From NCBI GenBank assembly GCA_030248225.1, contig JASANE010007193.1, forward strand, positions 1 to 64,000: a stretch of DNA of 64,000 nt, written 5' to 3'. Positions 41,626-64,000 of the stretch are shown here, piece after piece. Under the pieces are notes generated by a model, which was given only the letters and a program-made list of their open reading frames with translations, was not told the origin of the DNA and made no database searches. The stretch's first letter is position 1. Each line of letters opens with the position of its first letter. Origin of the DNA: Trileptium ribeirensis (lineage: Eukaryota; Nematoda; Enoplea; Enoplida; Thoracostomopsidae). The position numbers and the translations under genes were made by a program.

Positions 41626-43268
41626 AATTTCATTTGGATTAGTTTGCAGGACTACATAGTTTAGTTTCACGCGGTTTCCTGAGAGGAACGTTCTAAGATC
41701 ATAGACACCGTCTTCGAAAGGCTAAAAAAGTTGCTCAACAATATTTGGTGGGTTTTAGATTGGTGGTGAATTCACATAATTCTGCTGTGATTTTGGTTGT
41801 CCAGCAATATCGACTCGTCGGGCCGAAGTTGGGTAGTGCCGAAATATGGCGCAGTATAACATGTTCGCGATATCGAGCCCGACGTACCGCGCATTAAATT
41901 TTTGCAAACCTGAACAGGACCAACATACTCTTACGGGAGCATGGCATTTACTATCGGCTCTTCGTATGAGTATCTGTCTGACACTATGTTGTAGCCTTAG
42001 ATTAGCATTCCCCGCCATAGGTAGTGTTCCTCCCTTTTACTTCATAACACTGATCACCCCTCAACAGAAACTTAAATTTTCAAGTTAATACTTAATTTGT
42101 TGGCATGGTTAATCGACACAAACAGCGAAATAAGTTGTAATTTACACTATCTGAGTGTATATTTCTATTTGCACTGTTTTGTTGATCATATTCAATTTGC
42201 ATTTTTGAGCTTTTCGAGACTATCACATAGAAATTAGTAATGAAACTAGCCGAAAGTTGAAAGTTTCTAGCGGACCCGTGCCGACTTTTCGCAAGCCTGT
42301 TGACAAGACGAAAATTAGAATTGAGCCTAGCCGAGCTCGAAAATTTCTTTTTTTTCTCATCTCTAGCCCCTTGTTCGTGAACCCTCGCCCATCGCAATAT
42401 TCCGGCTCCGCCTTGTCTAATTTAGCTTGATAAATTTTTTCTACCCACTGTGAAGCACCAGTTTATACCAAAAGAAAATATGCAATATGTTCTTGTAAAA
42501 TCTAATTCCGAAGCTAAATATCTAATAGATAAAGCAAAAATAGTGGTGTGTTAATCTTATGTGCGTTTTGCGTTTATGCATATATATTTGCTAAAACAAA
42601 AATTACTGAAAACGCAAAAAGGTGTCATGGGAGTTGAAGTCTAACCTCTGTATTGGTACCGCGGGACGGTGCATTAGACCCCGTTTCAATACTCATGTCT
42701 TTGGGCTATCTAAATGACGTGCAAGTTCGAACTGAAATAAAACTTCCGACAAAATGTAAAGGTGAAATTTGAAATAAATACTCATAGTTCTTGCCCTCCT
42801 CACCTTACTTGATTACTTAAAATATTTCAAATTTATATCTATACGACCAGTTAAACATTTGTCGAAACATTACGGGAGTTAATGCTTGTTATAATTTAGG
42901 ATAAAACTCAGCGATAAATGTAGTATTCTAACCGGTGCCAATGTGGTATCACCTTCAGCAATTCTTTATACATTCTAGCAACGACTTTAATTTTAGCGTT
43001 GTGCACCGACCTGATTTTTCGCTGGCTAACCGGCCGGTAAAACGACCGACTAGCGACTTTTCCGACTGGTAGACAGGACCGCTTTCGGACCTCTCCAAGA
43101 TTAATTTTGCTAAATTTATATATATATTTTTCAAAAACTAAAATTTTCAGTGCTTATTATGCATTGCCTAATTGCATTCATCCACCACATTGTTACGTCT
43201 GAGATGTATATACAATGCCGAAAAACGGCCGACTGCAAAAGATGGCCTTGAGACGCCAGTCATATTAT
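41626..43268. other. Spacer, nothing recognised
   Basis: Open frames of 80-101 codons (41755-42018, 41846-42088, 42092-42397) have no domain and no flanking splice sites. 43010-43080 and 43215-43235 share ACGACCGACT/ACGGCCGACT-like GC-rich strings, a minor local repeat. Confidence 0.45.
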
Positions 43269-43320
43269 GCATCATTTACTTTAAGATGTGTGCAGCAGGG
43301 CCGAATTTTGTCACAGACTG
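43269..43320. mobile_element. Solo end of the CCTTAAGATGTGTGCA TIR family
   Basis: CATCATTTACTTTAAGATGTGTGCAGCAGGGCC... matches the right terminus of the element at 25871-26705, inverted. The similarity is lost after the GTCACA block, so only one end is left. Confidence 0.7.
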
Positions 43321-43399
43321 CTGCGGCTCTAAAGCCATGATTGGCTAGCCGCGTCAGCCAATGTGACTTTTTTGGGCTGAGCCACACCCTACAAATGTA

Positions 43400-43660
43400 C
43401 TAGGACCAGTTCTGGCCCTAAGGGATCCCAGCTGCACCACCATTTTTTCTCGGCGTGGTGCCCGGACAACCCCGGCTTCCACGACTCCCCGGTGATCTAT
43501 GCAATGACCTAAGGGAACCGCTTAGCTTAGCAGGCCGCCGGCAGGTTAACCAGGGTGTTCGGCCTGGCCCCTATTTTGGCCCACGTATCTAGTGGCATGC
43601 AGGTCCCCCTGAGGGAGAGTCAACCCCTAAGCCTGCTCACAGGTAATAAGGCTGACTCGC
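43400..43660 (-). repeat. Dispersed GC-rich repeat, copy 1
   Basis: On the minus strand it shares AGGCTTAGGGGTTGACTCTC and GGCCGAACACC with 61900-62130; on the plus strand it shares CCTGCTCACAGG and similar blocks with 47580-47840. Three diverged copies of one non-coding family. Confidence 0.6.
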
Positions 43661-45245
43661 CTTTCCCTCAATCCTACTTGAATCCTTGATCTTAAATGGT
43701 GGTGAATTTTCTTATTTTGATCCGAGGCTATTACCGATTTCTTAATGGGTAAAGCCTGATTTGGTTTGCGGGACTACCTAAAGATCGTATTCGGTTGCGA
43801 CTCTGATTATTAAACTGCCAGGTAGCGAGCCGAATGGAGACTTTGTCCTCTCTTCTCTTTGCAAGGCAACTCCTAAATCAGATTGAACATATCGCTAGGT
43901 GAATTATTGAACACTCTAACATTTAATTCATGTACAACATAGGCACTCATGCGCTTATGAATATATGCAAATTATTTACACAATTGACAAGTCGGGTACC
44001 GCGCAGGGCACCCCGTTGTGAATTCAAACAGTGAGGTGAATCCTAGTCAGACCCCCGATGGGAACGCGAAAAGTTCAGTTCAGCTTGCGCTTACACTTTA
44101 TGCCCCAGGGACTGTGTTACCCGCCTGACAGTACACAGGTGTAAACTTTCCTTGTCGACTTCTTTGTCTATTTTGCCTGTAAAACACTCTATGCTATCAT
44201 TGTTAAACACTCGTTTCAATCCGTATTTCATCCGGGTGAGGACCGTTCACTGAGTCCGGGTGTCAGCTGCGGATCTCCAGAATTGTTAATTTATGATTGA
44301 AAGATCTGCCTGCGCCAGGGTCGGATAGAAAACGTGGGCCTTTGTCGAAAGGGAAGGCGCTGCCGCGTCTCCCGAGTTTTGTTTGCTTTGTACTGATTCT
44401 CGAATTGATGATTTGGCAGGAAAACAGGGCTCTATACGGAAACCCACCGTGTCTAAAACGGTTTATGGGTCCGCGCCGCTGAATTTTTTCTTTTACAGAA
44501 AAGCTTGGGAAGACAATTGACTCGTATCCTTCTCAGGGCCGTCGCTCGACTAACGGATGCGAGCACAAGAATTTTCTTAAAATTTGACTCAGTCATGCGT
44601 TGCAGCTGACTCCGTCTCATTTCCTAATTTGGTGATGCGCTCCCCCAAATGCCTTTGATTTAAACGGAGGTCCGCAGTCATTTACAAACGTGAATAGGAC
44701 GCACGCTGCTGCGCCCTCGACGAATTGCTTAGTTTGGGAACTAAGAGACGGCAGTGATGGTTTTAAATTTGAAAACACTTCAGATACCCCTGCATGGTTA
44801 GAATAGTAGGGTTGCAAAACCGTGAGAAGAGGGGAAAACAGCGCACGCAAGGTCCTAATACGTCACTCCCTATGGAGCAGCCGCATCGACCCATCGATAG
44901 TCGTTCCACTGTAAAAATACGTGACGGAGTGCTCTACCGTGTCTAAACGGTCTGAGACCCGTCTGAATTTTTGGGGATACTTGACTGAAATTTTTATTCG
45001 GAGCGAAACGAATCTCAGAGTAGGAGCTCGAATTTCTGGGGCTAGGGTCAGGGGTTCAATTCTTAATTTCCTTTAAAAGGCTCCACGTGTGCAAATGACT
45101 GCGTCCATCCCGAGCGGACCGCTCGCTCTGCTTACCCAATAACTGGGTGTTTAAGTCGTGTGACCTGGAGTGGTTCTTATAGATTTTCCTATGACCTAGG
45201 CTCGACTCAAGCTACGACTTAGAAGGCGAGCGCGAATGGAGCACG
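43661..45245. other. GC-richer region preceding X copy 2, no gene recognised
   Basis: About 1.6 kb, GC-richer than its surroundings. The motif ACCGTGTCTAAACGG recurs at 44934 and 45360, with one inserted base at 44447. Frames such as 44297-44482 and 44617-44850 lack domains. It probably belongs to the same large element as the X and Y segments that follow. Confidence 0.4.
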
Positions 45246-46616
45246 AGTCGAAAGAGGTTCCGTTGTCTCTTAAGGGTCGTTGGAAAATTTAGAATTGTTT
45301 TACAATGCCAATTTGCGGCGGGGTCCTAAACTGTTTGATGCAAATTATTACAGTCTTCTACCGTGTCTAAACGGCCTGGAAGACTGGGTCTTTTTAAACG
45401 ACTTTACGGGGAACGATTTGCTGAAACGTTCAGGGATCAAGGCTCGAAATTTTGATGAGATGCCTAGCGCGGATCCTTACTAATACTCAACTAACTTTTG
45501 CCTGAACGGCTGCCTCCAGGTCACCACGCTACTAGTTCCCTGCTTTAGTTGCCTTACCCCTCCCGTGTCCCTGTGTCCTTTCCCCTTCTTGTGTGCTTCT
45601 TATCTCCTTAACCCTTTCACACCACTAAAATTCGCCCCCGGGTCTAAAACAAAATGGCGACCCGGCGAGCGGGGAACCAATCGAGGCTTTAAATTTGGCG
45701 TGCAACCTAACTCGTGATTTTCTTGGGACTGCACTTACAGGAGCATGGAGCATCCTTAGGACACACCCGCACCCGCACATTTATGTGACACGACGCCTCA
45801 ACCAACATGACTCAACATGATTGTATACTTTTACACTCATTTGCCAGATCTATTCTACCTCGCAACACTAACAATACCATTCTAATTTCCACGCATTTCC
45901 TGCCACATTTAATCACAGCTATTCCACAATTTAAGTTGCATTTCAAACTGGGATTATTACTTATCAGGCATTTGTACAGCCTCAGGCCATTCTGGAGAAA
46001 TTTACACAATCCCTAAAATAAAATCGTTTTTAGCGATGTTTTTCGTATATTCCAATATTTGTTCAGATTGTTTGTTCCGCATACATCGTTTGATGATATT
46101 CTAACAATTTTATACGTTTAAACAAGTTACGAGAATAAATTCTTTTGCTAGATTTAATAAAACAACATAAGAAGTATACACCCTAGACATAGGTGTCGAT
46201 AGGAGCAACCACTAACGGTCGGATCTCCGCTGAAACCCACCAAATCTGTTCCGCTCGCCTCACCCGCCCAGCCGCGCGCCTAAGAAACACGGAAAATATT
46301 ACCCAAATTGTATAAAAACTGCCAAAAATGTGGTAAAATTGGCAAAAAAAAGGAGAAACTAGGAAAAATTGATTTCAAATTGGTCAAGATTTTAGAAAAT
46401 TTTTGTAAAATTAGGGAAAGTTTTGAGTTCTTACATATCCCACGGAAACCTCCGCCTCGCCAAGACCGTCGACCCCTTTTTCCCTAAGCCGACAAACCTT
46501 CGACTCCTATGACCTTAGGCTTTTATTGCTTGTCATCCTATTCCAAATTGAAATGAATACAGTGCTCAGACCATTAGCAAAGTTTCTATGGTTCTGTGTA
46601 CCTGCCTAATGTATTA
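45246..46616 (+). repeat. X and Y segments, copy 2
   Basis: Direct copy of 37521-38880: the X segment at 45246-46017 and the Y segment at 46018-46616, with only scattered changes. Unlike copy 1 it has no inverted left arm. The Y segment ends at the TIR element, as in copy 1. Confidence 0.92.
45280..45483 (+). CDS. Unknown 67-codon frame in X copy 2
   Basis: Reads KLFDANYYSLLPCLNGLEDW, VFLNDFTGNDLLKRSGIKAR and NFDEMPSADPY before a TAA, and opens with TTG just after an in-frame stop. The composition looks protein-like, and the X copy at 37575 keeps KLFDAN and LEDWVFLNDFTG in frame before small indels change the C-terminus. It may be a remnant of a transposon protein. I do not recognise the family. 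Confidence 0.3.
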   Translation: MENLELFYNANLRRGPKLFDANYYSLLPCLNGLEDWVFLNDFTGNDLLKRSGIKARNFDEMPSADPY

Positions 46617-47240
46617 TTTACCTTAAGATGTGTGCACCTAGAGCCGAATTCTGTAAAAGAGTCCATTCCGGCTAGTGACAAAAAGGCGTAGCCACATCCG
46701 GCGCGTCATAAACAAAATAAACAGCTATGGTATGCTGGTATGTTTGTACGAGCCGGAAGCAGCTATGTTTCAGGTTTTGACAGCTGGGACGAATTATTCA
46801 AAAAATATTTATTACGTTCGGTTTAGCCAATTGTGCTGCGGAGAAAATCTTTAGTTCTAGACCCAAAAAGCGCAAGATAGTAGCACTTATAAGTAAGACG
46901 CACAAATGCAACTAAATTAAATACATAAATATAGCTATTTTCAACATTTTGTTTAGGTGCCTTTTACAAGTCAACCTTTAGTAGATATGTAGAATACGCG
47001 CTTTCAATCATGAAAATTACACTATTGTAACTGGAAGGATGTAATTAGGAATATATGACCATATGTATTACCAATTTTCATTTTTTCGTGATTTTCCATT
47101 GTCGTCATATATTTTGGGCTTTTAGAGCCGATTCGGGCCCTTGTGAAAATTTGCTAGCCTCACTTTACTATTTGCTAATATATTTCTCCGGTCTGGCTCT
47201 TCCATAAAATGTCATACTGGCTGATCGCGGCTAGCCAAGC
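46617..47240. mobile_element. CCTTAAGATGTGTGCA TIR element, nearly full copy
   Basis: It starts ATTTACCTTAAGATGTGTGC at 46617 and follows the intron-4 element through CGTAGCCACATCCGGC, GGTATGTTTGTACGAGCCGG, AGACGCACAAATGCA and TGTCATACTGGCTGAT. The last 50 bases with the right terminus are replaced at about 47240. No coding frame. Confidence 0.8.
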
Positions 47241-47840: not shown

Positions 47841-50661
47841 CCATTCCCTATCTCGATCTCCTTGTAACTTAATTGAAACCATAATACGCGTTAGCATGAG
47901 TATGTATCCACTAGGCGTGTGGAGTGTTGACACTGGTACAATTTGAAATTTGTTTTCATGTAGTCCTCTACGTGCACGAATTTGTTCAGCAAAGATTTGA
48001 CCAATGTGGCCTCACAGGGTTCCGACGATCCCTAAAAGTTTATTGTCGGACTCAGTGGTATATTACGCGGCAAAATTATCTTTACATTAAGGTCAACTGG
48101 CTTCTTATGCCACTGTAAATTTGGTATTCAATTACTGTTTATGTTTATTAATTTTTTGACGAGCGTGTTTATTTCTAGTTTCAATGGAACTTTCTATCGC
48201 GCCATTTTTTTCACTTTGTTAAATTAGTACAGTAAGTAAACAAACGGCACACGTCAGAGCTTGGAATCTGCTATCTTCGTGTCCGTGCGCGGTGCGCTGG
48301 TCAGTTTGGCAGGACCAAACATTGAACATATAACCGCTGCCAGAAACGAACAGTAGACAACGAGAGTTAACTTTCTTTTTAGTTTATTGTAAAATAAGCG
48401 CAAGGATTAAACAGGCAGGATAAGGTACATTCACACAATCAAAAGGGGCACGCAAACAACACCGCATGGGGGTATGATGAGTAAACAAGTCACATAATGG
48501 TAACCTAGGCACATTAGAAAGCGAAATATATCGAGCATTGGGGTGATCAAATATTTGCCGTGGCGTCAAGTTCGCGATATGATAATCAGCTATTGGACTC
48601 GGAAGCACGTTCAGTCGAGCTTCCAAACTTGTTTGTTGTACAAAACGAGCTAAGGTTTATACTCCACGATCTAGGGGTTACACTAAATTGAGACGAAACG
48701 GGCTAAGATCCGTTCTAAATTTAGCGACATGGATGCGAATAAAGCGCGTGCCAAAGTCGGAACCAAAGAAATGACAGTGACAATCCTTAGTGACAAACAA
48801 ATAAAATATGTACTGTGTGCATGAAAATAACGGTACTACATAACGTATGATACAACATATGACGATATTCGATGATTCCAACAGTCCTCGATAGTAGTGT
48901 ACTCGCTTAGGAATTCGCTTAAAGCCTAAACTAGCGGACGGTATACTCTTAAATTTAACACATAACTGAACCTGAGATGCTATTCCTTAATACTCTACCA
49001 GTAATACATGAGCTATAGTTCTGTAGTAAACTTCGTTGTCGTGCGGCTATGTAACTAATACATTGGATAAGGTTGAGGTACTCACGATGTAGAATACTTG
49101 GCAGTCCTAACACGACACTTATGCATATCCTGCTTGATGCCATACAATCCTATAGTTTTTGACAAAGGATATGTTAGTATTTGGTAATCCATCCCGTCAC
49201 ACTTCGCGATAGGCTGAACGGTCTACTCTGTGCCGGTAGCACAGAGGCTGAAACAGTGCGATCCGATAAGCGGGGAGAGTGATTTCGCAATATAAAACCA
49301 ACATAAAGGTCATGCAAAGCAAAAGACAATGTCGGGGTCAGCGCGAATAGGAATGCACCGTTCCTACCTCTGTCAGCTTTATATTCTAGAGGATCCTTTG
49401 TTTTACTATCATTTCGCCATTCCGTACTCTCGGCAGATGTATCGTTCTACATTAACCGCAAGTCTAATAGTTTTACACGGATCAGTTTACACTGACTTTA
49501 AGCCATGTATTCCAGGAAGGTGACTCGTCCGAGCTCCTTTTCGTAAGACTAAATTTGTTATGGACTTAAGGAGTAACCGTGGATAATACGTCAAGTCACA
49601 CTGATAGTTCGCTTAGGACTTATGCTGCGTTTAGGTTATGAATTGCTCACCATGTGGAAGTTTTGTTCATGTACAGCCTGCAGAACACCGTTAACTATAT
49701 ACTGTACAGAACACCAACACTGTATTCTAAGTAATTTTATAAAGTGTTTCGGATACCGTGAGTATTTATGTATGGTATTATGGACACCGCAAACATCTGA
49801 CTAGCTGTGATGAAAGTCCTTTGGCAAGATGGCTTGTTGTTTTTTCTGTTGTATGAAGTTTATACAGTGCAGGCGCTGTCCATCATGCGCTTCCTTCGCA
49901 AAGCTTTAAACGACATATTTTATGGGACAAAATTAATTAGCGTAAATTTTTTCAAATTTCACTTAGCTAATTTTCCCGCATTTTCTTAAACAACTGTTCA
50001 ATTATAGGGTGTCGAAGACACCATAGTGTGATATACACGGTGTCCGCGGCACCATTACTTGTGCCACATAGTATAGCCTTCCGACTACCATGCATTGTGG
50101 TATGGTCGTGAGCAAACATTGACAAAACTTCCAAATGGTGGGGCTTTATAACATAAACGCCTCATTAAACATCCAGCCGTTATGATGTTTTAATCTGAAT
50201 TCCACCTACACATATGAGTTTTCGCCTTTTTTAGATCTAAATACACTTTTTCGTCGGTCGAAGCCCGTCTTCGAACCATATCTTAGAAGATTTACCATGG
50301 CTTTACCAGGATTCGTAGCCAAAGAAAATTTGATGATTCTTTATATATATTAAGCCGAAACAAAGATATCCTACTCTGTCGTCATCGATCGGTATCTCGG
50401 AGATGAGGTGGCGACCTTTCCGTTGGCCAAGTCTCCCTTGTAACACCGGTCGATCAGGGCCAAGTAATTTTAGCAATTTCGGACCTTGCTCAGGGCTCGA
50501 AAATAACCTACTCCAGGCCGGAACAAGGTGGCTTAAATTTCACTGACTAGCTGGTCTGGTGGATCGCTCCAAAGTTTCCTATCCCACCCTTAAGTCAAAT
50601 ATTTTCAAATTTTACCGATGTTTACTACATAATTCTAAATGTAGTAATTTTCATATTTCAG
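47841..50661. other. Unassigned DNA, no repeat or gene recognised
   Basis: About 2.8 kb of fairly even composition without tandem repeats. Frames of 60-80 codons on both strands (48384-48626, 49329-49523, 49807-49989 and others) have no domains and no convincing splice sites. Confidence 0.45.
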
Positions 50662-50820
50662 ATACAACTCCCCTGTTTAGCGATGATTGTTACACTTGGG
50701 GTTCGTGCCACGGTACGCAGAAACTGGATCGCGAAACTGGCGTTAATCGGCGGCGTGGTGCGCTCAATTACTGAAAGCCACACTCGCACTCGTAGAGTTC
50801 TTAAAGCCATCGAGGATCAA
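50662..50820 (+). CDS. Probable internal exon of an unknown gene (53 codons)
   Basis: A polypyrimidine-containing acceptor TTTTCATATTTCAG precedes 53 open codons in phase 0, followed by a consensus donor GATCAA/GTAAGT in phase 0. It encodes IQLPCLAMIVTLGVRATVRR, then NWIAKLALIGGVVRSITESH and TRTRRVLKAIEDQ, an amphipathic, Val/Ala/Arg-rich helical sequence. I do not recognise the family. It does not resemble the missing sestrin C-terminus, and no partner exon was identified nearby. Both splice sites and the even codon use support a real exon, but chance cannot be excluded. Confidence 0.5.
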
Positions 50821-53185
50821 GTAAGTGGGGGTTGTCACCCCTTTTCTTCTGTTTTCCCAATCTCACGGAGCCTTAAGAATCCTTCATAGAAGATTAGATT
50901 TTGCCCATTGTTTTATAATTGAGTCCAACCCCTAAGTTTAATCTCATGCCTTAGCATTTACTTGAACCCAAGTAACTTTTATATTTATAGACCGAAGTAC
51001 TCTAGTTTAGTTTGAAATTCGGTCTTGACAGCTACCGAGCCGATGACTGATGACAAGGCACTAGTTGTAATTTTTCGACGCCGGAGTCTAACCTCGGCCC
51101 TATTTATAATTCCATTCTAACCTAAGATCTCCATATTCGCTTGACTACGGAATATTCAGCCCGATACTACCATACCCTAGAAGTGAGCGCAAGTGAACAC
51201 ACTTGGTAAGGGTAACTCAAACCTAGTAAATTTTAGATTTCAACGATTATTCACCCTATACCTAGAATATTTACTCTCTACTCTATCTTCGTTTTGCCCG
51301 TTACGCCAGCCGGTATCGTTATCGTACATATTTCTGTTGACGAGGCAAACCTCAAACATGTTTTATTTCGACCGAATTAGCCCTAGATTTATTAGCAACT
51401 GGACAGAGTCAGAGTTATGTCGCTTCGAATCGCAAACTATTCCTAGTTAATCTGATAAAGTTTGTTCGATTCTTTCCGGATCTTCATTAGGCGTGACACA
51501 CACCTAACTGAAACTTTCCTACCTAAAACGTTGTGCTCATAATTTAACTGATCAGAATTAGACCGCAGGGTGCAGTGCGTAACCTGAGTAATGTCAGGAT
51601 TTAACTCATGAGATTTCATTACTACCTAAGAAGTATTGCTATGATAATGAAGGCATCTCGTTGAATGTGTGCAACCGCCTTTGTGTTTTTGTGTGGCTAG
51701 GAGAATCTCCCAGCTATCTACATTCCATATCACCTATAAAGGAGACACTACTCCCACTTGCTATCTAAACTAGGATCGGTGAGCATTGTCATGAAATTAG
51801 AAAATCGCGTAAAACTAAGAGTCCACTGAGTACTTTTTAACGAGTAGGGCGAGGGTATACTCGTTCGTAAGCGACATTCCCAATATTCCGGCCAATTTTT
51901 GTGTGGCCTGAGGGGATTCTCAGGCTAATGGAGTAAACTATGACCCTGTACGTTCATGCAACCATTAAGCTCATACGATATAGTTGTCATTGGATTCACT
52001 CGTGCCTGTTGTATCCTGATTAACCTATGGTCAGCAAACCCGTATCTAGTGCGAGATTCGACCTGGACTTTTTAGGTATGTACCGAGTTGGGATATTCCA
52101 GCAGGGTGAGATACTGCCAAGTTCTATATTCGCGGTTACCGAACTGTACGATAACCATTCCTAAGTTATACCGCACTACCGAAAACTGTTGGCTGCTATA
52201 CTTTAGTGTTCTTACGATGTCCTTGCAGAATCCAAGGCGAATTCATGTACCCTAACTGGTTGCGTTCCCTGTGCCTAAACTTTTCCCTACGATCTCGCTA
52301 TCATAAATCAGTTGCCCAATAGAATGCCTTTACTCCTATGCTAGGTGGCAGAAACTTCCCGGTTATTGTCATGTTGGGAACATCCACCCAATAGGATAAC
52401 CTCATGTTCACGTTTCACAATGGAGGGAAGGGTGCAAAATTATGTCATTTGTGATGTCCAATCACTCGACGGATTTGAATTCACGGCTCAATTAATAGTT
52501 TTTCCTCCAAAAGTGCAAACCTGATACTTTGTCGACGGCCCTGAAGGCACTCCTGAAAAATGTAGTAACATTGTTATGTTAAGACAAAGTTAGCTCAAAC
52601 CTATCTCCTCTTGGGGGCGTTTGGTGTTAACCTTGCTTTAATATTTTCCGGCTCTTATTAGTTGACCGAAGCTAATAAGCGCCGTAGATAGTTACATTTT
52701 CAACATATCCAAAAACCTTGGATGGACAGCCGTCCGGTGACAAAAACAATGGGCACAAAGACCCAAAGTTTAGTCCGAATTTTATGTGTCATATGGGAGC
52801 GTATTGTGTCAAGTTTGTGAACGTATTTTCGATCTGTTGGAAACAGTTTTTCGAAACTAATTACCTACGGGTAAAGTCCAATTGTTTAGCTATCTAAAAA
52901 GTTCAGAGGGGCATTCCTTCTGTTAAGAACAATTTAGATGTAAGCTGCCACAATTGGTCCAAAATACATGTTGGGGCGGCAAAGTTGTGCCATTTTCAGA
53001 TCACATAGCATGTATGAATTTGAAGTACTCGTGAATTACAGCGGACTTCTTCGGTAAACTAGCTCCTAACCTATACCAAAAGTCTATGGGGATATTTGTC
53101 CTACGCTGGTGGGCGTACAGGCCTGCTCCAAACCAGGACAAAATTGTATTTTTCGTGTTTAATATTGTAATCGATTCTGTTTCGA
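50821..53185. other. Unassigned DNA, no repeat or gene recognised
   Basis: About 2.4 kb with no tandem repeats and no frame with a domain; the 85-codon frame 51193-51450 is unsupported. Confidence 0.45.
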
Positions 53186-53455
53186 CAGTTTGATATTGGA
53201 GCTTCCCCCTCCAGTTTGACATTGGTGCCCCTTCCAGTTTGACATTGGTGGCGCCTCCAAGTTGATATTGGTGCCTTGTCCAGTTTGATATTAGTGCTCC
53301 CTCCAGTTTCATATTGATGCCCGTCTCCCAGTTGATATTGGTGTCCAGTCCGGTTTGATTGCGGACACCCCCTCCAGTTTGATAGTGGTGACCCCTCCAG
53401 TTTGATAGTGGTGTCCGTCCAGTTCGACATTGGTGTCCCCTCCAGTTTGATATTC
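53186..53455 (-). repeat. 23-bp minisatellite, array 1
   Basis: About eleven copies of a unit close to CCCCTCCAGTTTGATATTGG TG, 22-25 bp long. Because 23 is not a multiple of three, overlapping frames on the minus strand run through all phases and give peptides such as IKLEGAP and SNWRG, which are artefacts. Confidence 0.92.
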
Positions 53456-53601
53456 ATAAACTATAAAAATGGCTGGGCTGCTGTCATGTTAAGCATTTTC
53501 CACTCATGAATTTTAGCGCCACACATGGGTATTGTTAATTAAAAAGATTGTAATTTATATTTTTATCTGTACATGCAAGGTTGAAGGTGTTACATCATAG
53601 T

Positions 53602-53804
53602 TGCCTCCAGTTTGAGATTGGTGCGCCCCCTTAGATTTGATATTGGTCATCCCTCCAATTTGATATTGGTGTCCCTCTCCAGTTTGATATTGGTGCCGTC
53701 TGCAGTTTCATATTGGTGCCCACCAGTTTGAGATATTGGTGCCCCCTCCAATTTGATATTGGCGCCCCCCTCTAATTTGTTATTGGTGCCCCCTCCAGTT
53801 TGCG
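53602..53804 (-). repeat. 23-bp minisatellite, array 2
   Basis: Same unit and direction as array 1, about eight copies, separated from it by 146 bases of unrelated sequence. Confidence 0.9.
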
Positions 53805-54059
53805 TAACGTGACACAATTATATTATTATAAAGATCTAGCAAATAGTTGTCGATGAGGAAGCGGGCGTAGGGTTTTGGCCAACACCTAAGGGTTGGACCT
53901 CAAGCCAAGTCTACCTTTCCTGAAGGCCGCACAGTGCCTGCTCTGTCCGTCGCCGCGCTTCTAATACGAGCACGAGGAAAATTTTTGCAACATATTGTAA
54001 AATATTAAGTTAAAATTGGCAAAATCGAAGGCAAGGAGGAAAAATTTATTGAAAATCGG
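53805..54059. other. Short spacer
   Basis: Unassigned. It contains a GC-richer stretch (53850-53980) without features. Confidence 0.4.
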
Positions 54060-54300
54060 CAAAAATGTAAGAAAATTCTACCAAATTTGAGAAAAAATGG
54101 AAAGTTTTAATTCAAATTTGAGAAAAAATAGGAAACTTTTGCCAAATTTTAGAAAAAATTGGGAAAATTTTCCTAAATTTGAGAAAAAATGGAGAATATT
54201 TTACCAAATTTGGGAAAAAATAGGAAAAATATTACCAACTTTGAGAAAAAATGGAGAAAATTTTACCAAATTGGTTAAAAAATTTTGAGTTCCTGAAAGT
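54060..54300. repeat. 31-bp tandem array, about seven units
   Basis: GAGAAAAAATGG and variants start at 54089, 54120, 54150, 54181, 54212 and 54243, each followed by AAA-TTTTACCAAATTT-like sequence. The 63-codon frame 54097-54288 is a product of the repeat. Similar AAAATTGG-rich text occurs at 37080-37200, 38590-38700, 46320-46430 and 58400-58490. Confidence 0.85.
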
Positions 54301-56019
54301 GAAAATTTCAAAATTTTCTCCATCAACTGCCTATTCCTCAGTCGCCGACACCACCTATACCACTATGACGACGGAGCTTGGACACCTATAATCTAGCATC
54401 TCTAAATCAAAGACTTCGAAAAATCTATTCCTATATTTCAGCATTGTATACTCAATCAGTTGGTTTCTCACAGAGATTGTGATTTATCTCTTGAAAATAT
54501 AATTTTGTTAATTTTTTTGCAAACTGTAGCTTACTCCCATTTATTGTAAACTTTGAGATACGCTGCGCAGATTGTATGAATAAAAATTTATGTGCAAACC
54601 TTTAGAATTATAATGGGCAATGCCTTTTGGTTTATTAAATCAATGCCTTCTAAAAAAGCCCAACATTTCCCTACAACTTGTCTTGTTTGCTCCTCTCGCA
54701 AATGTGCTACATATTTCAACAAGCAAGGCAGCGTCTAAATAATAATTTACAGTTAACCACCATGTTTTTGGTCGTATTTTGGATTCTGTTAAGTCGATGG
54801 CAGTTATGTAAATAGCCACATACATGTTATAAATTGGAGCATCTAATGTCGCAGCCGATGTACAATTCTATCTAATTTAATTGATTCCTGTTTAATATAT
54901 CCGATTAATATGAAAGTTTTATTTTGCTAATGAAATGCAGTTTACACAACGCAGTAAAGTGACGTGTAATTCGGCAACGTATAAGTGCGATGACACTAGT
55001 TATTTGTTTAAGGAGAAACGTCGAAAATTATTGTCATACGTTTGGAATGTGTACTTATAACAATTTGCAAATTGTAACATCAAATTTTAAGAGAGCAACA
55101 ACGCACCTCAATGGCCTGACAGGTTTGTGAAGCATAACTAAATATTACTTTTAAAAGAACACAGGAAGAGTTATGTTAAGTGTAGTGGTGAAACTGTTAA
55201 ATTAGTCATATTACTTTTGCTAAGATATTGTTTTCTGATAAAAATTGAAGCAGTCATAAAGTCTGCTGTTTCAGCTGACGAATACCATATGTTTTATGCG
55301 CCTTGTGTACAGTAGTCCCATTCAACGTACTATAAAATTGATGAAATACCGATATTGCTTCAGCTACATCGTATAGTACTGGAGAAATCGCAATTTAGTT
55401 TACAAGTGATTATTTGATCATTTTCCGTCAGTTAGTCCCCACGTTGTTGCGCGGAATGTTTATCAGTTGAATAGCTACGATAAAGCGGTGGTGAATCCTC
55501 AAATTGAATGATGAAAGAGTAAAACAACCTGGAACATGGTAAATATGTATTTAAAAACATCAATTTGGCTTAAATTTTGTTCTACAAATAAATTTTGAAA
55601 TTGTATCCGTTTAGGTTTTCTGCTACAACACACATACGCATCAAGTACATTGTGCATCTGAAAATAAGATACTTTGTAAATTAAATTGCTAAAAAATAGA
55701 TATATTTTAAGGCTCAAACTCTAGTAATGAACTCAAATAATGTCCATCTGTTGTAGCGTTGAGAAAGCGTTAAATATTCTGGCTCTTAATAATTGACTTG
55801 GAATTCAAGCTGATAGAGCTATAGGGCTAAATGTGACAAGCGAAAACATCGCGAGTGAATAACATGTGTTATGGTATTCCCAAACTACCGCGCTCCAGAT
55901 CAGAGCAGCCATTCATTGGTCACAAACACATTTTTGTCCAGAGTACATGCATTAATCACCACCTACCTGATGGATCAAAAACTGTTACAGCGTGAATACG
56001 GTTAAATCATAGGTTTCGA
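54301..56019. other. AT-rich spacer between inverted minisatellites
   Basis: About 1.7 kb, no gene or repeat recognised. Frames 54640-54825 and 55499-55717 lack domains. Confidence 0.45.
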
Positions 56020-56889
56020 CGATATCAAACTGGAGGGTTCACCAATATCAAACTGGAGGTATACCAATATTAAACTGGAGGAGACACCAATATCAAAATA
56101 GAGGGATGCACCAGTATCAAACTGGAGGAAGCACCAATAACAAACTGGAGGGTCTACCAAGATCAAACTGGAGGTGGCATCAATATCAAATTTGGGGGAA
56201 CCAATATCAAACTGGAGGGGGCACCAATATCAATCTGGAGGGGGCACCACTATCAAACTGGAGGGGCCATCAATATTAAACTGGAGTAGGCACCAATATC
56301 AAAATGCAGGGTGCAGCAGTGTCAAACTGGCGGTGGCACCAATAACAAACTGGAGGGGGCACCAAAATCAAAATGGGGGACACCAATATCAAACTGGAGG
56401 GAGACATTACTATCGAACTAAAAGGGGGTACCAATATCAAACTGAGGTGCACAAATACCGAACTGGAGGAGAGACCAATATCAAGATGGAGGGGAGCCAA
56501 ATATTAAACTCGAGCGGGCACCAATAAGAAACTGGAGGGGCACCAAAATCAAACTGGAGGGGGACAGGCGAATCAAGCAAGAGGGGGCACCAATATCAAA
56601 CTGTAAAGAGACACCAATATCAAACTGGATGGGCACTCATATCAAATTGGATAGGAGCATCAATATCAAACTGCAGAGGGGCACCAATATCAAATTAGAG
56701 GGGGCATCAATATCAAACTGGAGAGTTGCACCAATATTAAACAGGAGGAAGCATCAATATCAAAATAGAAGGGTGCACCAGTATCAACTTGGAGAGGCAC
56801 CAATAACAAACTGGAGAGGGCAACAAGATCAAACTGCAGGGAGCACCCATACCAAGCTGGGGGGGCACCAATATCCAACTGGAGTAGAG
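56020..56889 (+). repeat. 23-bp minisatellite, array 3 (opposite orientation)
   Basis: About 36 copies of CACCAATATCAAACTGGAGG GGG, the reverse complement of the unit in arrays 1 and 2. Units vary from 20 to 25 bp. Open frames of up to 117 codons (56174-56527, 56629-56955) are artefacts of the array. Confidence 0.93.
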
Positions 56890-57014
56890 TTTCGTACAGT
56901 TCTGTGTACGAATGTTACATACGACATGTCGTATGTAACAAAAATTTTCGAGTAGACGGGGGCATTATTCCGTGAATCAGCAAGAATCCCGGCTGATCCA
57001 ATGTATGATCACTC

Positions 57015-57734
57015 GTGGATCTTTTGCAGTGTTACTTCACAGCAACCGCAACTCATGTCGACACGAGCTCATATGACTTTGTGCGAACTCTGCAGACCAC
57101 AGTCAACCATCTTAACGCTCCCGAGCGCCTTCATTCAAATCCTTGGCACGTCCCTAAAGACCTGCTACCCACTAGTCACGTGTGGCTACGACACGACACA
57201 GTCAAAGGTGCTCTTCAACCCCGCTTCCTTGGACCTTTTGAAATCAAAAGCCGCAACGGCAAAACCATCGTCTTGAAGATCGGTGATACCGAGGACACAG
57301 TCAGTCTTGGACGGGTCAAACCAGCACTCATACACAACGATGCAGTCAAGCCGACTTCCCCCGCTTCGCCGTTTCGGGATGACAACCCAATTCAACAGCC
57401 CGAAATTGGCGACGTCATCCTCGAGAAATTCCCCAATTGGCCTCACTGGCCAGCGCTAGTCATTTCTGCGGACAACACAGAGCTCACTAACCACAAGAGA
57501 CCCAGAAGCCCCGTAGCGGTCAGGTTTTTTGGAAGCAACCGACTGGCGTATGTTCCAACTTTCACGGTCCTCCCTCGTGCGGAAGCCAAGCTACCAATAA
57601 AACGACGCGATCTACAACGTGCGATGGACCTCGCTCACCGACACGTAGCAGCTACCCCGGATTCCAATAGCCCAATAGAAAGCACGGTGCAATTTGCTTG
57701 CGACGTCCAGATCCAAAGTCGGCGCTCCACTTAG
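57015..57734 (+). CDS. Ty3/gypsy-like integrase C-terminus fused to a PWWP domain (5'-truncated)
   Basis: 239 codons plus stop, GC-richer than the flanks. Residues 14-70 (HVDTSSYDFVRTL, HVWLRHD, ALQP) match the end of the integrase core and the linker of Ty3/gypsy pol proteins. Residues 70-105 form the GPY/F module (RFLGPFEIKSRNGKTIVLKI, then VSLGRVKPA). Residues 129-190 match a PWWP domain: EIGDVILEKF, NWPHWPALVIS, VAVRFFGSNRLAYVP and VLP, with Trp142, Trp145 and Phe171 at the usual aromatic-cage places. A basic helical tail follows (KRRDLQRAMDLAHRHV), as often seen after PWWP. PWWP domains commonly read H3K36 methylation; here it could steer integration, by analogy with chromoviral chromodomains. 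A TGA at 57006 in the same frame shows that upstream pol is missing or broken. No LTR pair is visible. Confidence 0.85.
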   Translation: MDLLQCYFTATATHVDTSSYDFVRTLQTTVNHLNAPERLHSNPWHVPKDLLPTSHVWLRHDTVKGALQPRFLGPFEIKSRNGKTIVLKIGDTEDTVSLGRVKPALIHNDAVKPTSPASPFRDDNPIQQPEIGDVILEKFPNWPHWPALVISADNTELTNHKRPRSPVAVRFFGSNRLAYVPTFTVLPRAEAKLPIKRRDLQRAMDLAHRHVAATPDSNSPIESTVQFACDVQIQSRRST

Positions 57735-58010
57735 AGTCGTGAAATTCACTCTCTAACATAATTTTAATTTTTGCGTTAGAGAGACCCTTTTTATGGAATT
57801 CTCGGAAACCCTAACTCAAACAAAGCCCAGCAGAAATACACTTACATTTCCGCTAATGTAAGTGTAATAGTTAAGGCACCCAATGGCTACACTCAAATCC
57901 GACAGGTACCTAAACTATAGCCATGGCACACAAATTTTAAAATTTTATATTATTTTAAACTCTCTTAATCTTTATAATTCCAAGAACTAAATAAAGTTCT
58001 TATAGCCTGA
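57735..58010 (+). mobile_element. 3' region of the PWWP-integrase element
   Basis: Directly after the stop: a 9-bp inverted pair CTCTCTAAC/GTTAGAGAG (57749-57757, 57775-57783), then a perfect 12-bp hairpin TACACTTACATT/AATGTAAGTGTA (57837-57866), and AATAAA at 57990-57995. This could be the 3' untranslated region and part of a long terminal repeat, but without a second copy the LTR cannot be delimited. Confidence 0.45.
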
Positions 58011-59756
58011 AATGACCGATGGATGATGTCCGCAGCTTCTTAACGAGTGGGCCAATTGTGGCGAAATTTGGTATGGAAAATCTAGAGCGTGCCCTAGGGC
58101 ATTTGTTGTCAAAATCTGCATATTACCAAACCATCCCCCTGTTCAATTTAACACGATTTATCTAGTTCTTAAAAGTTTTATTTTACTGTGCTGGGAAAAT
58201 TTGATCTGAAAACTATTGCGATTTTCTGGCAATTACACATATTACATACGACTTACACATAATGAACAAAACAAACCATTATACACTCTTTCATCACTTA
58301 TGCAAAATTACACGTATTATACACGATTCACACGTAATAAACACAACAAACAACTTCCATAAAGTTAAGCAAAAATTGGTGGAATGAGGAAAACTTAAGG
58401 AAACGTTGACAATATTTTTGACAAAAATTGCGTAAAATTAACAAAAATCAAGAAGATTGCGCAAAATTAGAAAAAACTATGAACTTTTCAAAATTTAACA
58501 TGCTACCCATCGTTCATACTCCTCCAGCGCTAACTGGCTATCCCTCTGAGAAGCCTAAGGCCGACCCCCGTCCCCGCGGCACCGGCTGCCTCTCACCTGA
58601 GACGTTGAGCAGGTATATTTAAAATTGTACATAACAACATTCGCATGTAGCAACAACTGCGAATGCACGTAACAATGTTCGAGCATAACAAATGAGCAAA
58701 ACGTAACAACTTTAGCAATGCTGTTACATACAAGTGCTTATGCGTGACAATGTACTAAAGTTGTTTCGCAGAACCCGCTTCGCGTAACAACTTACGAAGG
58801 TTGTTACACACTGTCGGATGTAATGTTTCCGTACACACGCGTATTTGCTGACGATGTCGAGCAAGTGCACAGATTTCTGTACGAACGACGCAATACATGG
58901 AGTATTTTCACGTACTCGATGTTTCGTGATCAGAATTTGTAGTAGCGCGATGTGACTCTTCATGAATGTTGGGGCCAACGTGTGTAATTATCTGCAATTC
59001 ACTTTAACGTTTTCGTAGCGTAGGTGTTACCATGGGCGTCGCTAGGGTGTTTTGGAGGGGTCAATTTTTTTCGAAACCCAAAACTTTAATACTATCTGCA
59101 GGATAAGTTGCTATCAATTTTTGTGTGAACAGCAAAATCCTTTTTATAGCGAACCTGTCACGCAAATAGTAAATACCCCACGTTACTGGAGTACAAGTTG
59201 CTAATTCTTGATGTTCAAGCGGCACGCTTTGCTCTTTGTTAAGCGAAGTTCCCCTATAGCTTCGGTCAACCAATGTTCCGCTGTAGGTTTGAAAAGGTAA
59301 AGGAATGCTGTAGTCTTTGCATATTTACCGCAACCGGTAGCTGTAATGCGATAAGGGTAGGCATGTCGATGGAGAGTCTGGCTGCTCATTATCTGGACAT
59401 CGGAACGCGGATTTAGACAAGGTAATTTAAAAGTTTCAAAGTTTTATCAAAGCTTGTATGTAATCGAGCCGAATGTTGCCTAATTGACTTTTATTAATGC
59501 GTTTGACACGGTTATTTCCGAACCAACAGTAAAAATTAACCAACTAATTGCAAATTTTGAACTAACATTTTGCAAATCGGTAAAGGTAAGTAGGTTTTCT
59601 GCGGTTACATAAACAATACACTGCAATGCACTAGACTAATAAAAATAAGATAATCCAATACATAAAGTATATCAGCAATTTGAAAAGCTGCAATTTTGGT
59701 AAACTGCAAACAAAATACTGTATATGCTGCTACACTTTAGAGCGCGTGAGTTATGT
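58011..59756. other. Spacer with TAACAAC-rich stretch, no gene recognised
   Basis: 58620-58810 repeats GTAACAAC and its complement GTTGTTAC many times in irregular order; 58240-58350 repeats TACAC/ACACAT-type motifs. Nothing else is supported. Confidence 0.45.
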
Positions 59757-60259
59757 GGCGTTCACGTTAAAATGTCCGGGCTGTTTGGAACTTTTGTCCC
59801 CCTCCAGTCGCGACGCTACCGTATAGACGGTCATGGTGACACTCATACTGTAAATCAATTGCCAAAGGTGTACGACACACCACTAGCTACTACATTTTGT
59901 GTTTACAGTGTCGTACACACCCTTAGCTGCCCATTTGGAGCGAATTGACTTTAACGGACATCATCTGTAGCTAATGCGGTTTATTTGTCAATTGTAGCGT
60001 GTAGACTTATATAATTCTCGGTATTTGTATCTAGGCCATATGAACGTTGAAGAAATTATGGAGCAAACTCTCAGTAAATCCGCAAGAAAACAGGGTGCAC
60101 TTGACACTGTCGAGATGTAGCATTACCCCTAACTGGCTACCTATGAAAAAATTTGTTAAAAACATGGGGGTGTCTAAGGTGCCCTGTTGGCGACAGTGTG
60201 CCTGAAACTGTGTGGTGTACATAGGTTCCAAACGTTGGGAATATTATGACGTGAACGCC
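59757..60259. mobile_element. TIR element with GGCGTTCACGT ends
   Basis: GGCGTTCACGTTAAAATG...GTTTGGAAC (59757-59791) pairs with GTTCCAAACG...TATGACGTGAACGCC (60225-60259), imperfect inverted repeats of about 35 bp at the ends of a 503-bp segment. Inside are an 11-bp hairpin (59868-59878 with 59908-59918, GTGTACGACAC) and short frames without domains. A MITE-like element of unknown family; only one copy is seen in this window. Confidence 0.65.
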
Positions 60260-61899
60260 GCATTAAGGACTTGTTATGAAACATGGCAGAAGTTAAATAG
60301 ATTTGTAATATTGTGATATTTTAATTTCTTTTAGTAAAATATATGTTATGAGTATTTTTACGTGGTTATGATTTCTTCTGTTGGCCGGAATTATTTTGCT
60401 CACCTAAAAATTGTCTCAAATCTGAAATATTCCTTTTAGGTGTGCAATTAGTTTGGAAACTGCCAATATTTAGTTTGGCTTTTCGTGTTTTTTCCACTAT
60501 TCATTTTATAAGTGTCTCTGACAACTTGGTGTTTATGACACAATGCGGGTGGAACCCATTTGTGCGAGATACCATGAAAAATACCAGGACCCTCACACTC
60601 TTAATTTAGCTAGTGCCGTATTTTGTTGTACAGTTTATACGAAATTAAGGGAAGTGGTCGGAGAGAAATACTATAGTTCTATCTTTCTAAAAGTCGGACA
60701 TTCTTTGCTAAGTTTTACCGGGCAACTACGAGAATATGCGTGCATAGATTTAGTAAACGTTAAAAACATCCATCTATTGCTAATCTGCTTGATCTGAACG
60801 GTTTTTTCACGTCACTTAGTTGATATTAAAGTGGCAACTGCAACAAAATTAATTTTATCTAAGTGAAATCAAATCGAGTGAAATCAGTTCCAGAAATGTG
60901 AAATTAAAATCATGTGTTTCTACAAATGAAAACATGTTAAGTCGATTGCATTCGACTAAAAAAGTGGTCTTAAGCGAGAATTTGGGAAACGAGATTTTGT
61001 CTATCATTTTTGCCATATCACTGCACACATCTCATAGTAGTTTCGGCAGTACGCAAGTATAGCTCTCTAATTTCACGAAATACTAGAAAACATAGAATTT
61101 ATCCATAAATTCATTAAATTTGGTATAAAAGAGTGGAAATCCTGACGACAACGCAAGATTTAGGCCGTCCTGAGAATGGTAAAGGCAACTTTACAAAAGT
61201 GTGGCCAGGAGAATGTAAAGCTTTGGTAAATTTACTGAGTGCCGAAAGTCTGTCGGGCTGGACTAAAACATCAGATTGTAGTCGGGTACGAGGCTTGGGC
61301 AATGTGCCCCTTTTGTTGAGTTATTAAAGTGCCATTGCGGTAGGAGAACTGAATGTCTACGGGGTGCACTACGTGGTCAGCACCTCGCATGCATAAGAAC
61401 ATTTCATCTCGAAAATACTGTTCAATTTTTATATAACAAGATTTACGATCCAGCCGACTGTTGTTTTTGTTCGGTAAGGCGATTTCTGGGTTTATTTACC
61501 CCCAAAAGAACAAATATAAAATTGACCAGAGTTGGTCAAGTCAAAATACAACATCTGCCCACCGAAATATCATGCAAATAGATGAGCAAAAGAAGACTCA
61601 AACGTTCATAGGTTTTCGAATAAGCAGTTAGAAACTCGCTTTTGGATTGTAAGAGCTTGTGAACACATCCCGGTCATTCAGAAATCGTTGAAAAGCAGCC
61701 TGATCAAAACGGGAGAATAAGGTTAAATTATGAAGACGAGGGACACGTGAGAATTCAAACATGTGAACAGGAAACAAACATTAAAACCGTACTTAATGGG
61801 AAAACTTAAGCCAAATCAAAGCAAAAACTGCATGAACACGCCAAGTTGCGAAAATTTACCACCACCGGGCATCTTGACTTCGTTTGGAGGGAGATAGGA
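60260..61899. other. Spacer, no gene recognised
   Basis: AT-rich. An 84-codon frame at 60543-60797 and a 64-codon frame at 61133-61327 have no domain and no splice-site support. Confidence 0.45.
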
Positions 61900-62130
61900 A
61901 TATCGACCTTATTACCTGTACATAGGCCTAGGGGTTGACTCTCACTATGGCACCTCTAGTAATCATACCACAGATAGACAAGGTTGCCACCGAAATGGAG
62001 GCCGAACACCGTGGCAAAGACCGGCTACGGTCCACTAAGTACTGGTTCTCCCTTGACGATCCAGGACGCCGGGATCGTATGGGCACCGTTCTCAGGTAGC
62101 TGGGTAACCCAACAACACTGTTGGGAGGCG
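61900..62130 (+). repeat. Dispersed GC-rich repeat, copy 3
   Basis: Inverted relative of 43400-43660: CCTTATTACCTGT, TAGGCCTAGGGGTTGACTCT, GGCCGAACACCGTGG and GGACGCCGGGATCGTATGGGC. The first block also matches the fragment at 4442. Confidence 0.6.
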
Positions 62131-63240
62131 TTTTTGTTTGTTTTGTCTAGTCCAATTCGAAAATTTTACTCTCTAATTCTACTATCTATACACTTCTGGT
62201 ATTGATAGTGTAAAGGCGAAGCGCATCATTAGGCGCTTCAAAGCAAAATTTTAAAAACAAATTATATATAACAAATTAATGACACCACTATAATTCATAT
62301 GTTAAATGCGTGTCATTCGTTATGCTGTCATACACTATAACGGCAATAACTGTTATTTATTGGAGAAGTATAACATTAATAATTGCACACATTTTTATTG
62401 TATCTATAACGTCGAAGCGCTATGCCAAAACCTACAATTTCCAATTTTACTTTCAAACTGCCGCCAATTTGAAAAATATACAAACACTACTTCACATTTT
62501 ATCGTATTGTGAACCGTAATTGTTTTGTATAACCAAATATACTTCATCTTAAGCTGCATTTAAATAAAATATGCAATTTTGATATGAAGTAAGCGTAGGC
62601 ATTCGCAATTATATATTGGAAATGTTGAAGCACTAAATATTATTATATCGTAAATAAAAGACACATTGCGGCAAAACTGGAGCAAATGTTGGTCTGCTAT
62701 CGCATTGTGCAGCATTGAAGAACTGCAGTTGCTAATACAGTATTTAATTTGGGGATGCTTCCACGGCGTTGGTTGACGCTGAGTGATCTGTATTTAAGTA
62801 GTGTCATCACATTGAAATGTCTGGTAACAGCATCAAGTGCTTCTCCGCTGAAACTAGACAAATGTTAGGCGAAATGGAGCAGTTACTGAAACTGGTGCTC
62901 ACTGTTACGCTTTCTCTGGTGGATTCATAACGCTCGTTTTCATATCTTCAACGCATAAAAACTTGGCCAAGAGTTGGATCCGCAATAGCAGAACCCAACA
63001 GCATCTTAGGCATACTAACATTCTCGGCCTACACAAAAATTTATTGAATAGAATTAACATTAAGCCACTTATGAAAGAAATTATTAACAAAACAAGCTTA
63101 AAACCATTTTTGAAAAAATTGACTAATCCATTGTATTTCATATCCTCGCGTTTGGTATTCGACCCGTATTCAGCGCCTACCGGAGAAGAAACGTAGACTT
63201 TAGAGAAGTGTAAAAGGTAAGGGAACATCGAGCCTTAGTA
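62131..63240. other. Spacer, no gene recognised
   Basis: AT-rich. Overlapping frames on both strands at 62905-63228 (107 codons minus, 77 codons plus) have no domain. Confidence 0.45.
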
Positions 63241-64000
63241 GAAAATGCACAAGAACGATAAGACAGGTGAGGACAAATCGTGAGCATCGTATTCTAAACT
63301 CTGACCTAAATCATTGCAATGGGGTCATTCATTAAGCCTTTGCTGAGGCTTTAGGATTGACATAAATGACAATAACTATTTATCCCATGATCTGATTACA
63401 GTGATTTTACCCCAGTATTTGGCTCAGCTCGCCAATGCGATTCCAAAATATATGAAACTATACATTTATCGAGAATTTTCCTCAAAAATTTTGGTTAGCA
63501 TTGGGAACCTAAAAAACCCAAAAATTGTTTTGTCATAAAATGACCCTAATGGATATTTTTGACTCAGCTCGTCCAGCTGAGTCAAGGGTACAAAAATTAT
63601 CGCGGTATCTTCAAAATAGACGAGATTTGGCTTGGGGGGACTTAACAGGAAAGATCTTCTGACCTCAATAGTGGTTTCAGCTATGTGAACAACAGATCTT
63701 TCTTTAAGGCAGGTCATCTCTATGAAACGATGATGATGATTTAGTAACGGACAATATTCAGAGGAATAATTTGCTTGTAAGGTGGTTTTCTAATGCATTT
63801 ACAGGAAGTTAACTGTAGTGTTCCAGAAATACAAAATCAAACTGAGACGGTTCGGTGCGCTGTTTAGTTCACAATCGTTTAGGAAAATTGGTAAGATAAA
63901 CATAGTCACACGCGGGATAGATTTACACAATGTTTTCTGCCCAAATACAAAAGATATGATGTGCTACCCTCTTCGTCATATCTTTGGACAAAGTTTTATT
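63241..64000 (+). mobile_element. RT element copy at the right edge, cut by the window
   Basis: Direct, nearly identical copy of 39119-39880, starting AAAATGCACAAGAACGATAA. It includes the conserved hairpin near 63560 and the start of the reverse-transcriptase frame (TTCCAGAAATACAAAATCAA onward). The left flank differs from that at 39119, which fixes the element's 5' boundary. The continuation lies outside the window. Confidence 0.9.

What the first reader, a model, noticed from the sequence alone, without database searches (positions are those of the whole stretch)
57015..57734. PWWP domain fused behind the GPY/F module of a gypsy-type integrase
The open frame shows the GPY/F module (LGPFEIK ... 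VSLGRVKPA) followed within about 25 residues by a full PWWP core (GDVILEKF, NWPHWPALV, VRFFGSNRLAYVP). All three cage aromatics are present, and a basic helical tail follows. Chromoviruses carry a chromodomain at this place, and lentiviral integrase reaches H3K36-methylated chromatin through the separate PWWP protein LEDGF/p75. An element carrying its own PWWP would combine both. I do not know of a described family with this layout, but I could not search.
Basis: partly seen in the sequence, partly recalled or inferred. Interest (0 to 1): 0.88.

Follow-up and report, generated by a model that had tools for sequence, protein, structure and literature searches.

The report
Jumping gene carrying a chromatin reader
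The window holds a broken piece of a large family of retrotransposons whose integrase ends in a built-in PWWP domain, a type of protein module known for reading marks on packaged DNA, so these elements may steer their own insertion.

Summary
Confirmed and extended. The frame at 57009-57734 is a gypsy-type integrase tail joined in frame to a PWWP domain (PF00855, 33.4 bits, cut-off 25.6). The window copy is only a 720-bp piece (57014-57733) with unrelated flanks, but the join is no local accident. The window's own genome (687 Mb) gives at least 153 matches; 30 listed rows lie in open frames of 1017-1214 aa that run from the GPY/F module into the PWWP. Twenty long copies were fetched: a gag-place frame and a pol frame in 20 of 20, LTR pairs (284-531 nt, 86-100% identical) in 11, target duplications in 5 of 8 examined. 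PWWP matches 21 of 21 C-terminal pieces; three cage positions are aromatic in all 21. dN/dS indicates purifying selection on the PWWP, like the integrase tail, with the linker relaxed. I found no printed description in the papers searched. Best reading: a self-contained counterpart of LEDGF/p75, an integrase with its own reader, most likely of methylated H3K36. The mark is inferred, not shown. One clade adds a NADAR-domain ORF3.

The parts
57014..57733 (+). 720-bp piece of the 3' end of the pol gene of a Ty3/gypsy-like element; flanks unrelated to the element
   Evidence: blastn of the window unit against L002, L003, L029, L030: 88.9-91.4% over exactly 57014-57733 in all four, while those four share flanks with one another
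57015..57326 (+). C-terminal part of the integrase (from VDLLQCYF to VKPA) with the GPY/F module around 57204-57326
   Evidence: alignment A1 with 20 long pol frames; SH3_Tf2-1 sub-threshold
57327..57404 (+). linker, poorly conserved, with relaxed selection in relatives
   Evidence: alignment A1; linker dN/dS 0.26-1.02 in nine pairs and zero in two near-identical pairs
57408..57578 (+). PWWP domain core (GDVILEKFPNWPHWPALV ... VRFFGSNRLAYV)
   Evidence: PF00855 33.4 bits over cut-off 25.6, residues 134-190 of the frame
57579..57671 (+). basic segment with a helix-like pattern (KRRDLQRAMDLAHRH), partly conserved in relatives; probably the C-terminal helix of the PWWP fold (inference)
   Evidence: alignment A1
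57732..57734 (+). stop codon TAG, created at the junction of the piece with the flank (the four nearest relatives read TTAAA here)
   Evidence: flanks printed
56022..56884 (+). 23-bp tandem array just upstream, not part of the element
   Evidence: Tandem Repeats Finder

Best explanation
The window piece belongs to a large, diverse family of Ty3/gypsy-like LTR retrotransposons, in an unidentified eukaryote (probably an animal, inference), in which the integrase carries a C-terminal PWWP domain behind the GPY/F module. Shown: the fusion, its presence in three deep groups, purifying selection on it, and the LTR and target-duplication anatomy of real integrations. Inferred: after reverse transcription the intasome is tethered to nucleosomes by the PWWP, which reads methylated lysine (most likely H3K36me2/3) together with nucleosomal DNA, so that integration is biased to transcribed gene bodies. 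What lentiviruses obtain from LEDGF/p75 in trans these elements would have in cis, at the place where chromoviruses carry a chromodomain.
For: PWWP over cut-off in the window and at E<=0.01 in 21 of 21 C-terminal pieces, best 9.2e-18. 150 of 150 scored genome matches to PF00855 over cut-off, from 777 first-look candidates; 27 in frames of at least 1000 aa; the 14 control genomes give none. Fusion retained in frames of 1017-1214 aa, 30 listed rows. Pol pieces with RVT_1 (L032) and RNase H, H2C2 and rve (L032, L043) over cut-off. LTR pairs in 11 of 20, identity 86-100%. TSDs in 5 of 8 examined and a primer-binding-site motif in 17 of 20. Cage: W in 21/21 and F in 21/21 at the equivalents of W21 and F44, W/Y/F in 21/21 at Y18. 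PWWP dN/dS 0.06-0.35 in the 12 of 15 pairs with finite dS. A profile of 15 PWWP pieces matches 52 PDB sequences, led by NSD2, DNMT3B, LEDGF and HDGF-family chains.
Against: No binding or insertion-site data. The position equivalent to LEDGF M15 varies (F, V, M). Some PWWPs bind other marks or mainly DNA (recalled). Synonymous sites are near saturation in many pairs: PWWP dS is unbounded in 3 of 15 and above 1 in 8 more. Six integrase-only rows were not followed. The only structure attempt, single-sequence, was uninformative (mean pLDDT 32). The window copy itself cannot be active: the integrase core and all that precedes it are absent.
Confidence: 0.68

Rival explanations
1. The PWWP tethers the intasome but to another target: another methylated lysine (such as H4K20 or H3K9) or nucleosomal DNA without mark specificity, giving heterochromatic or unbiased targeting.
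For: Chromodomains at the same place in chromoviruses are linked to heterochromatin (recalled; their place at the integrase C terminus from passages of PMC2774666). A basic segment follows the core. Chromatin tethering as such, not a particular ligand, sufficed for LEDGF chimeras (abstract of PMC2706977).
Against: Aromatic cage kept in 21 of 21, expected if methyl-lysine reading matters; sequence nearest to LEDGF, HDGF, NSD2, DNMT3B (that LEDGF reads H3K36me3 from passages of PMC8149907, and DNMT3A from a passage of PMC11244446; the rest recalled).
Confidence: 0.25
2. The PWWP is a passenger without function in integration (for example it only helps folding or nuclear import).
For: No functional data.
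Against: Purifying selection similar to that on the integrase tail in pairs from all three groups, while the adjacent linker is relaxed; PWWP match in 21 of 21 pieces.
Confidence: 0.08
3. The fusion is a domesticated host gene rather than an element gene.
For: The window frame is isolated and open over 241 codons.
Against: At least 153 matches in the genome, with LTR pairs and pol frames and target duplications; absence of stops in the window copy is unremarkable at an assumed 5% neutral divergence (P 0.35).
Confidence: 0.02

Closest known systems
Chromoviruses (Ty3/gypsy with C-terminal chromodomain)
   Same: Ty3/gypsy-like LTR element, GPY/F module, chromatin-reader domain of the chromo-like SH3-fold superfamily at the integrase C terminus (PMC2774666 and PMC5906684, passages)
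Lentiviral integrase with LEDGF/p75
   Same: A PWWP brings an integrase to chromatin (PMC8149907 passages); LEDGF is the best PDB match of the window frame
   Different: There the PWWP sits in a host protein bound through the IBD; here it is part of the element's own integrase
CoDi-A Ty1/copia elements with a putative chromodomain
   Same: Chromatin reader at the integrase C terminus, thought to be captured independently (PMC2774666, passages)
   Different: Ty1/copia, chromodomain
Bdelloid rotifer LTR elements (Vesta, Juno, TelKA)
   Same: LTR elements, some with GPY/F, with enzymatic ORF3s including a GDSL esterase (PMC5408684, abstract and passages)
   Different: No chromodomain behind GPY/F there; dUTPase in pol; the word NADAR does not occur in that text; no PWWP in the passages seen

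Membership tests
Ty3/gypsy LTR retrotransposon | pol order RT - RNase H - integrase with GPY/F tail | tested here: met
   Pfam on separate pieces: RVT_1 in L032; RT_RNaseH, Integrase_H2C2, rve in L032 and L043; GPY/F columns in A1. The RT and core pieces of the other copies were not scanned.
Ty3/gypsy LTR retrotransposon | LTRs, primer binding site, target-site duplication | tested here: met
   LTR pairs in 11 of 20 long copies; PBS motif in 17 of 20; TSD in 5 of 8 examined (read by eye)
Ty3/gypsy LTR retrotransposon | placement in an RT tree with reference Ty3/gypsy clades | not tested
   No reference elements at hand; midpoint-rooted tree of the 20 copies only
Chromovirus | chromodomain at the integrase C terminus | tested here: not met
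   Pfam scan of 21 pieces: PWWP in 21, no chromodomain among the six families reported at E<=0.01
PWWP domain (PF00855) | profile match over the curated cut-off | tested here: met
   33.4 bits against 25.6; 150 of 150 scored genome matches over cut-off
PWWP domain (PF00855) | aromatic cage for methyl-lysine | tested here: met
   aromatic at three positions in 21 of 21 (choice of positions recalled from LEDGF)
PWWP domain (PF00855) | beta-barrel plus helix fold | tested here: inconclusive
   single-sequence AlphaFold2, mean pLDDT 32; tool then switched off
H3K36me2/3 reader | binding to H3K36-methylated nucleosomes | not testable with these tools
   needs a binding assay or a ChIP map

The most novel reading that the evidence does not exclude
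An old and large lineage of Ty3/gypsy-like elements has internalised the LEDGF solution: its integrase carries its own PWWP reader of H3K36 methylation, targets transcribed gene bodies in cis, and has diversified into subclades with further captured modules (a NADAR-domain ORF3 in one, a UPF0029 domain ahead of gag in another).
Probability: 0.45. Interest if true: 0.88.

Novelty: new variant of a known kind. Interest (0 to 1): 0.8.

Why it matters
How integrases choose chromatin is a long-standing question, studied mostly through chromodomain tails and through host tethers such as LEDGF/p75. A natural integrase-PWWP fusion under purifying selection, in at least 150 copies, some with LTR identities up to 100%, allows a direct test: do young copies sit in H3K36-methylated gene bodies, and does the isolated domain bind that mark? 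It would also be a naturally evolved counterpart of the tether swaps made in gene-therapy research (PMC8149907, passages).

Tried and rejected
Splice-acceptor idea: the TTTTGCAG before 57030 looked like an intron end, but its score is ordinary (17% of YAG sites score as well) and relatives show that VDLLQ is integrase sequence; dropped. Rest of the element in the window: no Pfam match at E<=0.1 on the + strand of 48001-57032, in six frames of 42501-46502, or on the + strand of 57735-64000; the rest of the window was not scanned this way. Protein database searches gave nothing: (331, 839 and 839 candidates; none at E<=0.001, 0.001 and 10). Viral contigs gave no relative and genome contigs none. 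Structure of the whole frame: uninformative. Host identity: not settled; the window holds a non-LTR RNase H frame and RTE-like pieces (by eye). Not obtained because the genome search did not complete: copy number of the window flanks, chromodomain elements in the same genome, a pol-core search for sister elements without PWWP. Host PWWP genes as capture source could not be compared (loci not cut). The first alignment of L001-L030 left minus-strand loci unturned and was discarded.

Full report
Observation. The frame 57009-57734 is real: 241 codons, the longest open frame between the RNase H frame at 16713-17591 and the window's end. The integrase tail gives only a sub-threshold SH3_Tf2-1 match. 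Base composition supports one coding unit: integrase part, linker, PWWP part and tail have GC 0.51-0.57 and 10-15% T at codon position 1, against 31% T in the same phase on both sides of the frame. A 241-codon open frame at this composition is by itself not rare (21% of simulated 6.4-kb stretches), so the case rests on the domains and the relatives.

What the window copy is. Upstream lies a 23-bp tandem array (56022-56884), and no further element sequence was found by Pfam on the + strand of 48001-57032. Comparison with the four nearest copies (L002, L003, L029, L030) shows identity of 88.9-91.4% over exactly 57014-57733 in all four; these four share integrase sequence upstream and a TGTAAC... 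start downstream with one another, while the window's flanks match none of them. The window therefore holds a 720-bp piece of a pol gene lodged in unrelated DNA. How it got there was not determined. The stop codon is formed at the junction.

The family. The window lies in G000:C4789 of a 687-Mb assembly. A six-frame search of that assembly with the 239-residue frame gives 153 matches (a lower bound: 150 of 853 candidates scored), at 31-100% identity in the listed rows. Thirty listed rows lie in open frames of 1017-1214 aa (one with an inner TAG); all thirty start before the GPY/F module and reach at least residue 181, that is into the PWWP. Thirteen listed rows match the integrase part only; seven of these have a second row next to them on the same contig for the remainder, six do not (two of the six, C15740 and C18136, in frames of 663 and 618 aa). 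Those six were not fetched, so elements without the PWWP are not excluded. A search with the Pfam PWWP profile gives 150 matches, all 150 over the cut-off, from 777 candidates; 27 lie in frames of at least 1000 aa, one of them with an inner TGA; the tool's 14 control genomes give none.

Anatomy. Of 20 long copies fetched, all 20 have a frame of 458-733 aa at the place of gag that overlaps, stop to stop, a pol frame of 1104-1214 aa; 11 show LTR pairs, aligned over 284-531 nt with 86-100% identity, a twelfth shows 79 nt and a thirteenth 39 nt of one. Gag itself is assigned by place; the only Pfam trace is DUF7041, below its cut-off. Eight LTR pairs were inspected: TSDs of 4 bp (L035, L038, L039, L041) or 5 bp (L049) are readable in five, not in L034 (contig end), L036 or L046. 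A primer-binding-site motif TGGTG(A/C)(A/C)CCCGA lies upstream of the gag-place frame in 17 of 20; its likeness to the tRNA-Trp end is recalled. Pfam on separate pol pieces gives RVT_1 in L032, and RNase H, Integrase_H2C2 and rve over cut-off in L032 and L043. A midpoint-rooted tree of the pol core shows three groups: A (L031-L039, L041), B (L046, L049, L050; the inner grouping of L046 with L050 is unsupported, 0.064) and C (L040, L042-L045, L047, L048). PWWP is present in all three, so one capture before their split is the simplest reading (inference).

The PWWP is conserved and selected. At E<=0.01 PWWP is found in 21 of 21 pieces (window plus 20), best 9.2e-18, and no chromodomain is among the six families reported. 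The positions equivalent to LEDGF Y18, W21 and F44 (numbering recalled) are W/Y/F, W and F in 21 of 21; the M15 equivalent varies. Nei-Gojobori comparison of 15 chosen pairs: PWWP dN/dS is 0.06-0.35 in the 12 pairs with finite dS (the two values of 0.35 from near-identical pairs, 0.32 from L049/L050); the integrase tail is 0.06-0.33 in 11 pairs; the linker is 0.26-1.02 in nine pairs and zero in two near-identical ones. In six of the 15 pairs the ratio is undefined in at least one module, and in 8 of the 12 finite PWWP pairs dS exceeds 1, so the exact ratios of the distant pairs are soft; the contrast with the linker does not depend on them. A profile of 15 PWWP pieces matches 52 PDB sequences at E<=0.001, led by NSD2, DNMT3B, LEDGF and HDGF-family chains.

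Mechanism. Shown: fusion, conservation, selection, integration scars. Inferred: the PWWP holds the integrase on nucleosomes and reads methylated H3K36, because of the conserved cage and the nearest solved relatives, and because LEDGF's PWWP does this for lentiviral integrase (PMC8149907, passages). Meehan et al. (PMC2706977, abstract and outline) report that tethering as such, whatever the ligand, was enough for LEDGF chimeras, which leaves room for a less specific role here.

Literature. Ten answered full-text searches. Four papers hold PWWP, gypsy and integrase together; I saw passages of three, none describing such a fusion, and the fourth only in the listing. Passages of PMC5906684, PMC8149907, PMC11244446 and PMC9817154 describe none either, and the word PWWP does not occur in PMC8556966 or PMC5890265. 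PMC6338049 (first of four parts of the text) names chromodomain and DnaQ-like exonuclease as well-known accessory domains of LTR polyproteins. Other papers were seen only in listings. The library lacks most subscription papers, and Repbase/Dfam were not available, so 'undescribed' means not found in these searches.

Side finding. Seven of the 20 copies (the seven of group C) carry a third frame of 254-364 aa after pol; all seven match NADAR (PF08719, 60-111 bits, cut-off 35.1), and five have sub-threshold GDSL lipase matches. The 3' LTR beyond it was seen only as a 39-nt match between L043 and L051, and not for L040 with L052, so membership of the frame in the element is likely but not proven. 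In group B, three of three gag-place frames carry UPF0029 in their first half (PF01205, 100-107 bits); it was not found in the five such frames of groups A and C that were scanned.

Noticed in passing
L040, L042-L045, L047, L048 (after pol): A third frame with a NADAR domain (PF08719, 60-111 bits) and, in five of seven, a weak GDSL-lipase-like second half, in the place where retroviruses have env.
   Followed up: partly
L046, L049, L050 (gag-place frame): UPF0029 domain (PF01205, 100-107 bits) in the first half of the frame in all three copies of one group.
   Followed up: partly
G000 rows C3578, C18136, C17143, C10137, C1253, C15740: Six rows match only the integrase tail, without a neighbouring PWWP row; possible elements without PWWP or broken copies.
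   Followed up: no
35963-39797: Long inverted repeat, arms of about 1.55 kb at 91.6% with about 740 nt between them, a foldback-like unit; further pieces at 45243-46877 (94%) and 63242-64000 (97.6%).
   Followed up: no
53186-53802 and 56022-56884: The same 23-bp tandem repeat in opposite orientation on two sides of a 2.2-kb stretch.
   Followed up: no
56913-56940: Perfect 28-bp palindrome TGTTACATACGACATGTCGTATGTAACA.
   Followed up: no
16713-17591: Non-LTR-like RNase H frame of 292 aa (PF00075, 46.7 bits).
   Followed up: no
12341-12855 (-): Frames that look by eye like the end of an RTE-type non-LTR element; no Pfam match for the piece scanned, 12344-12793.
   Followed up: no
1-1390 and 33316-35283: Large tandem arrays with units of 104 and 90 bp.
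   Followed up: no
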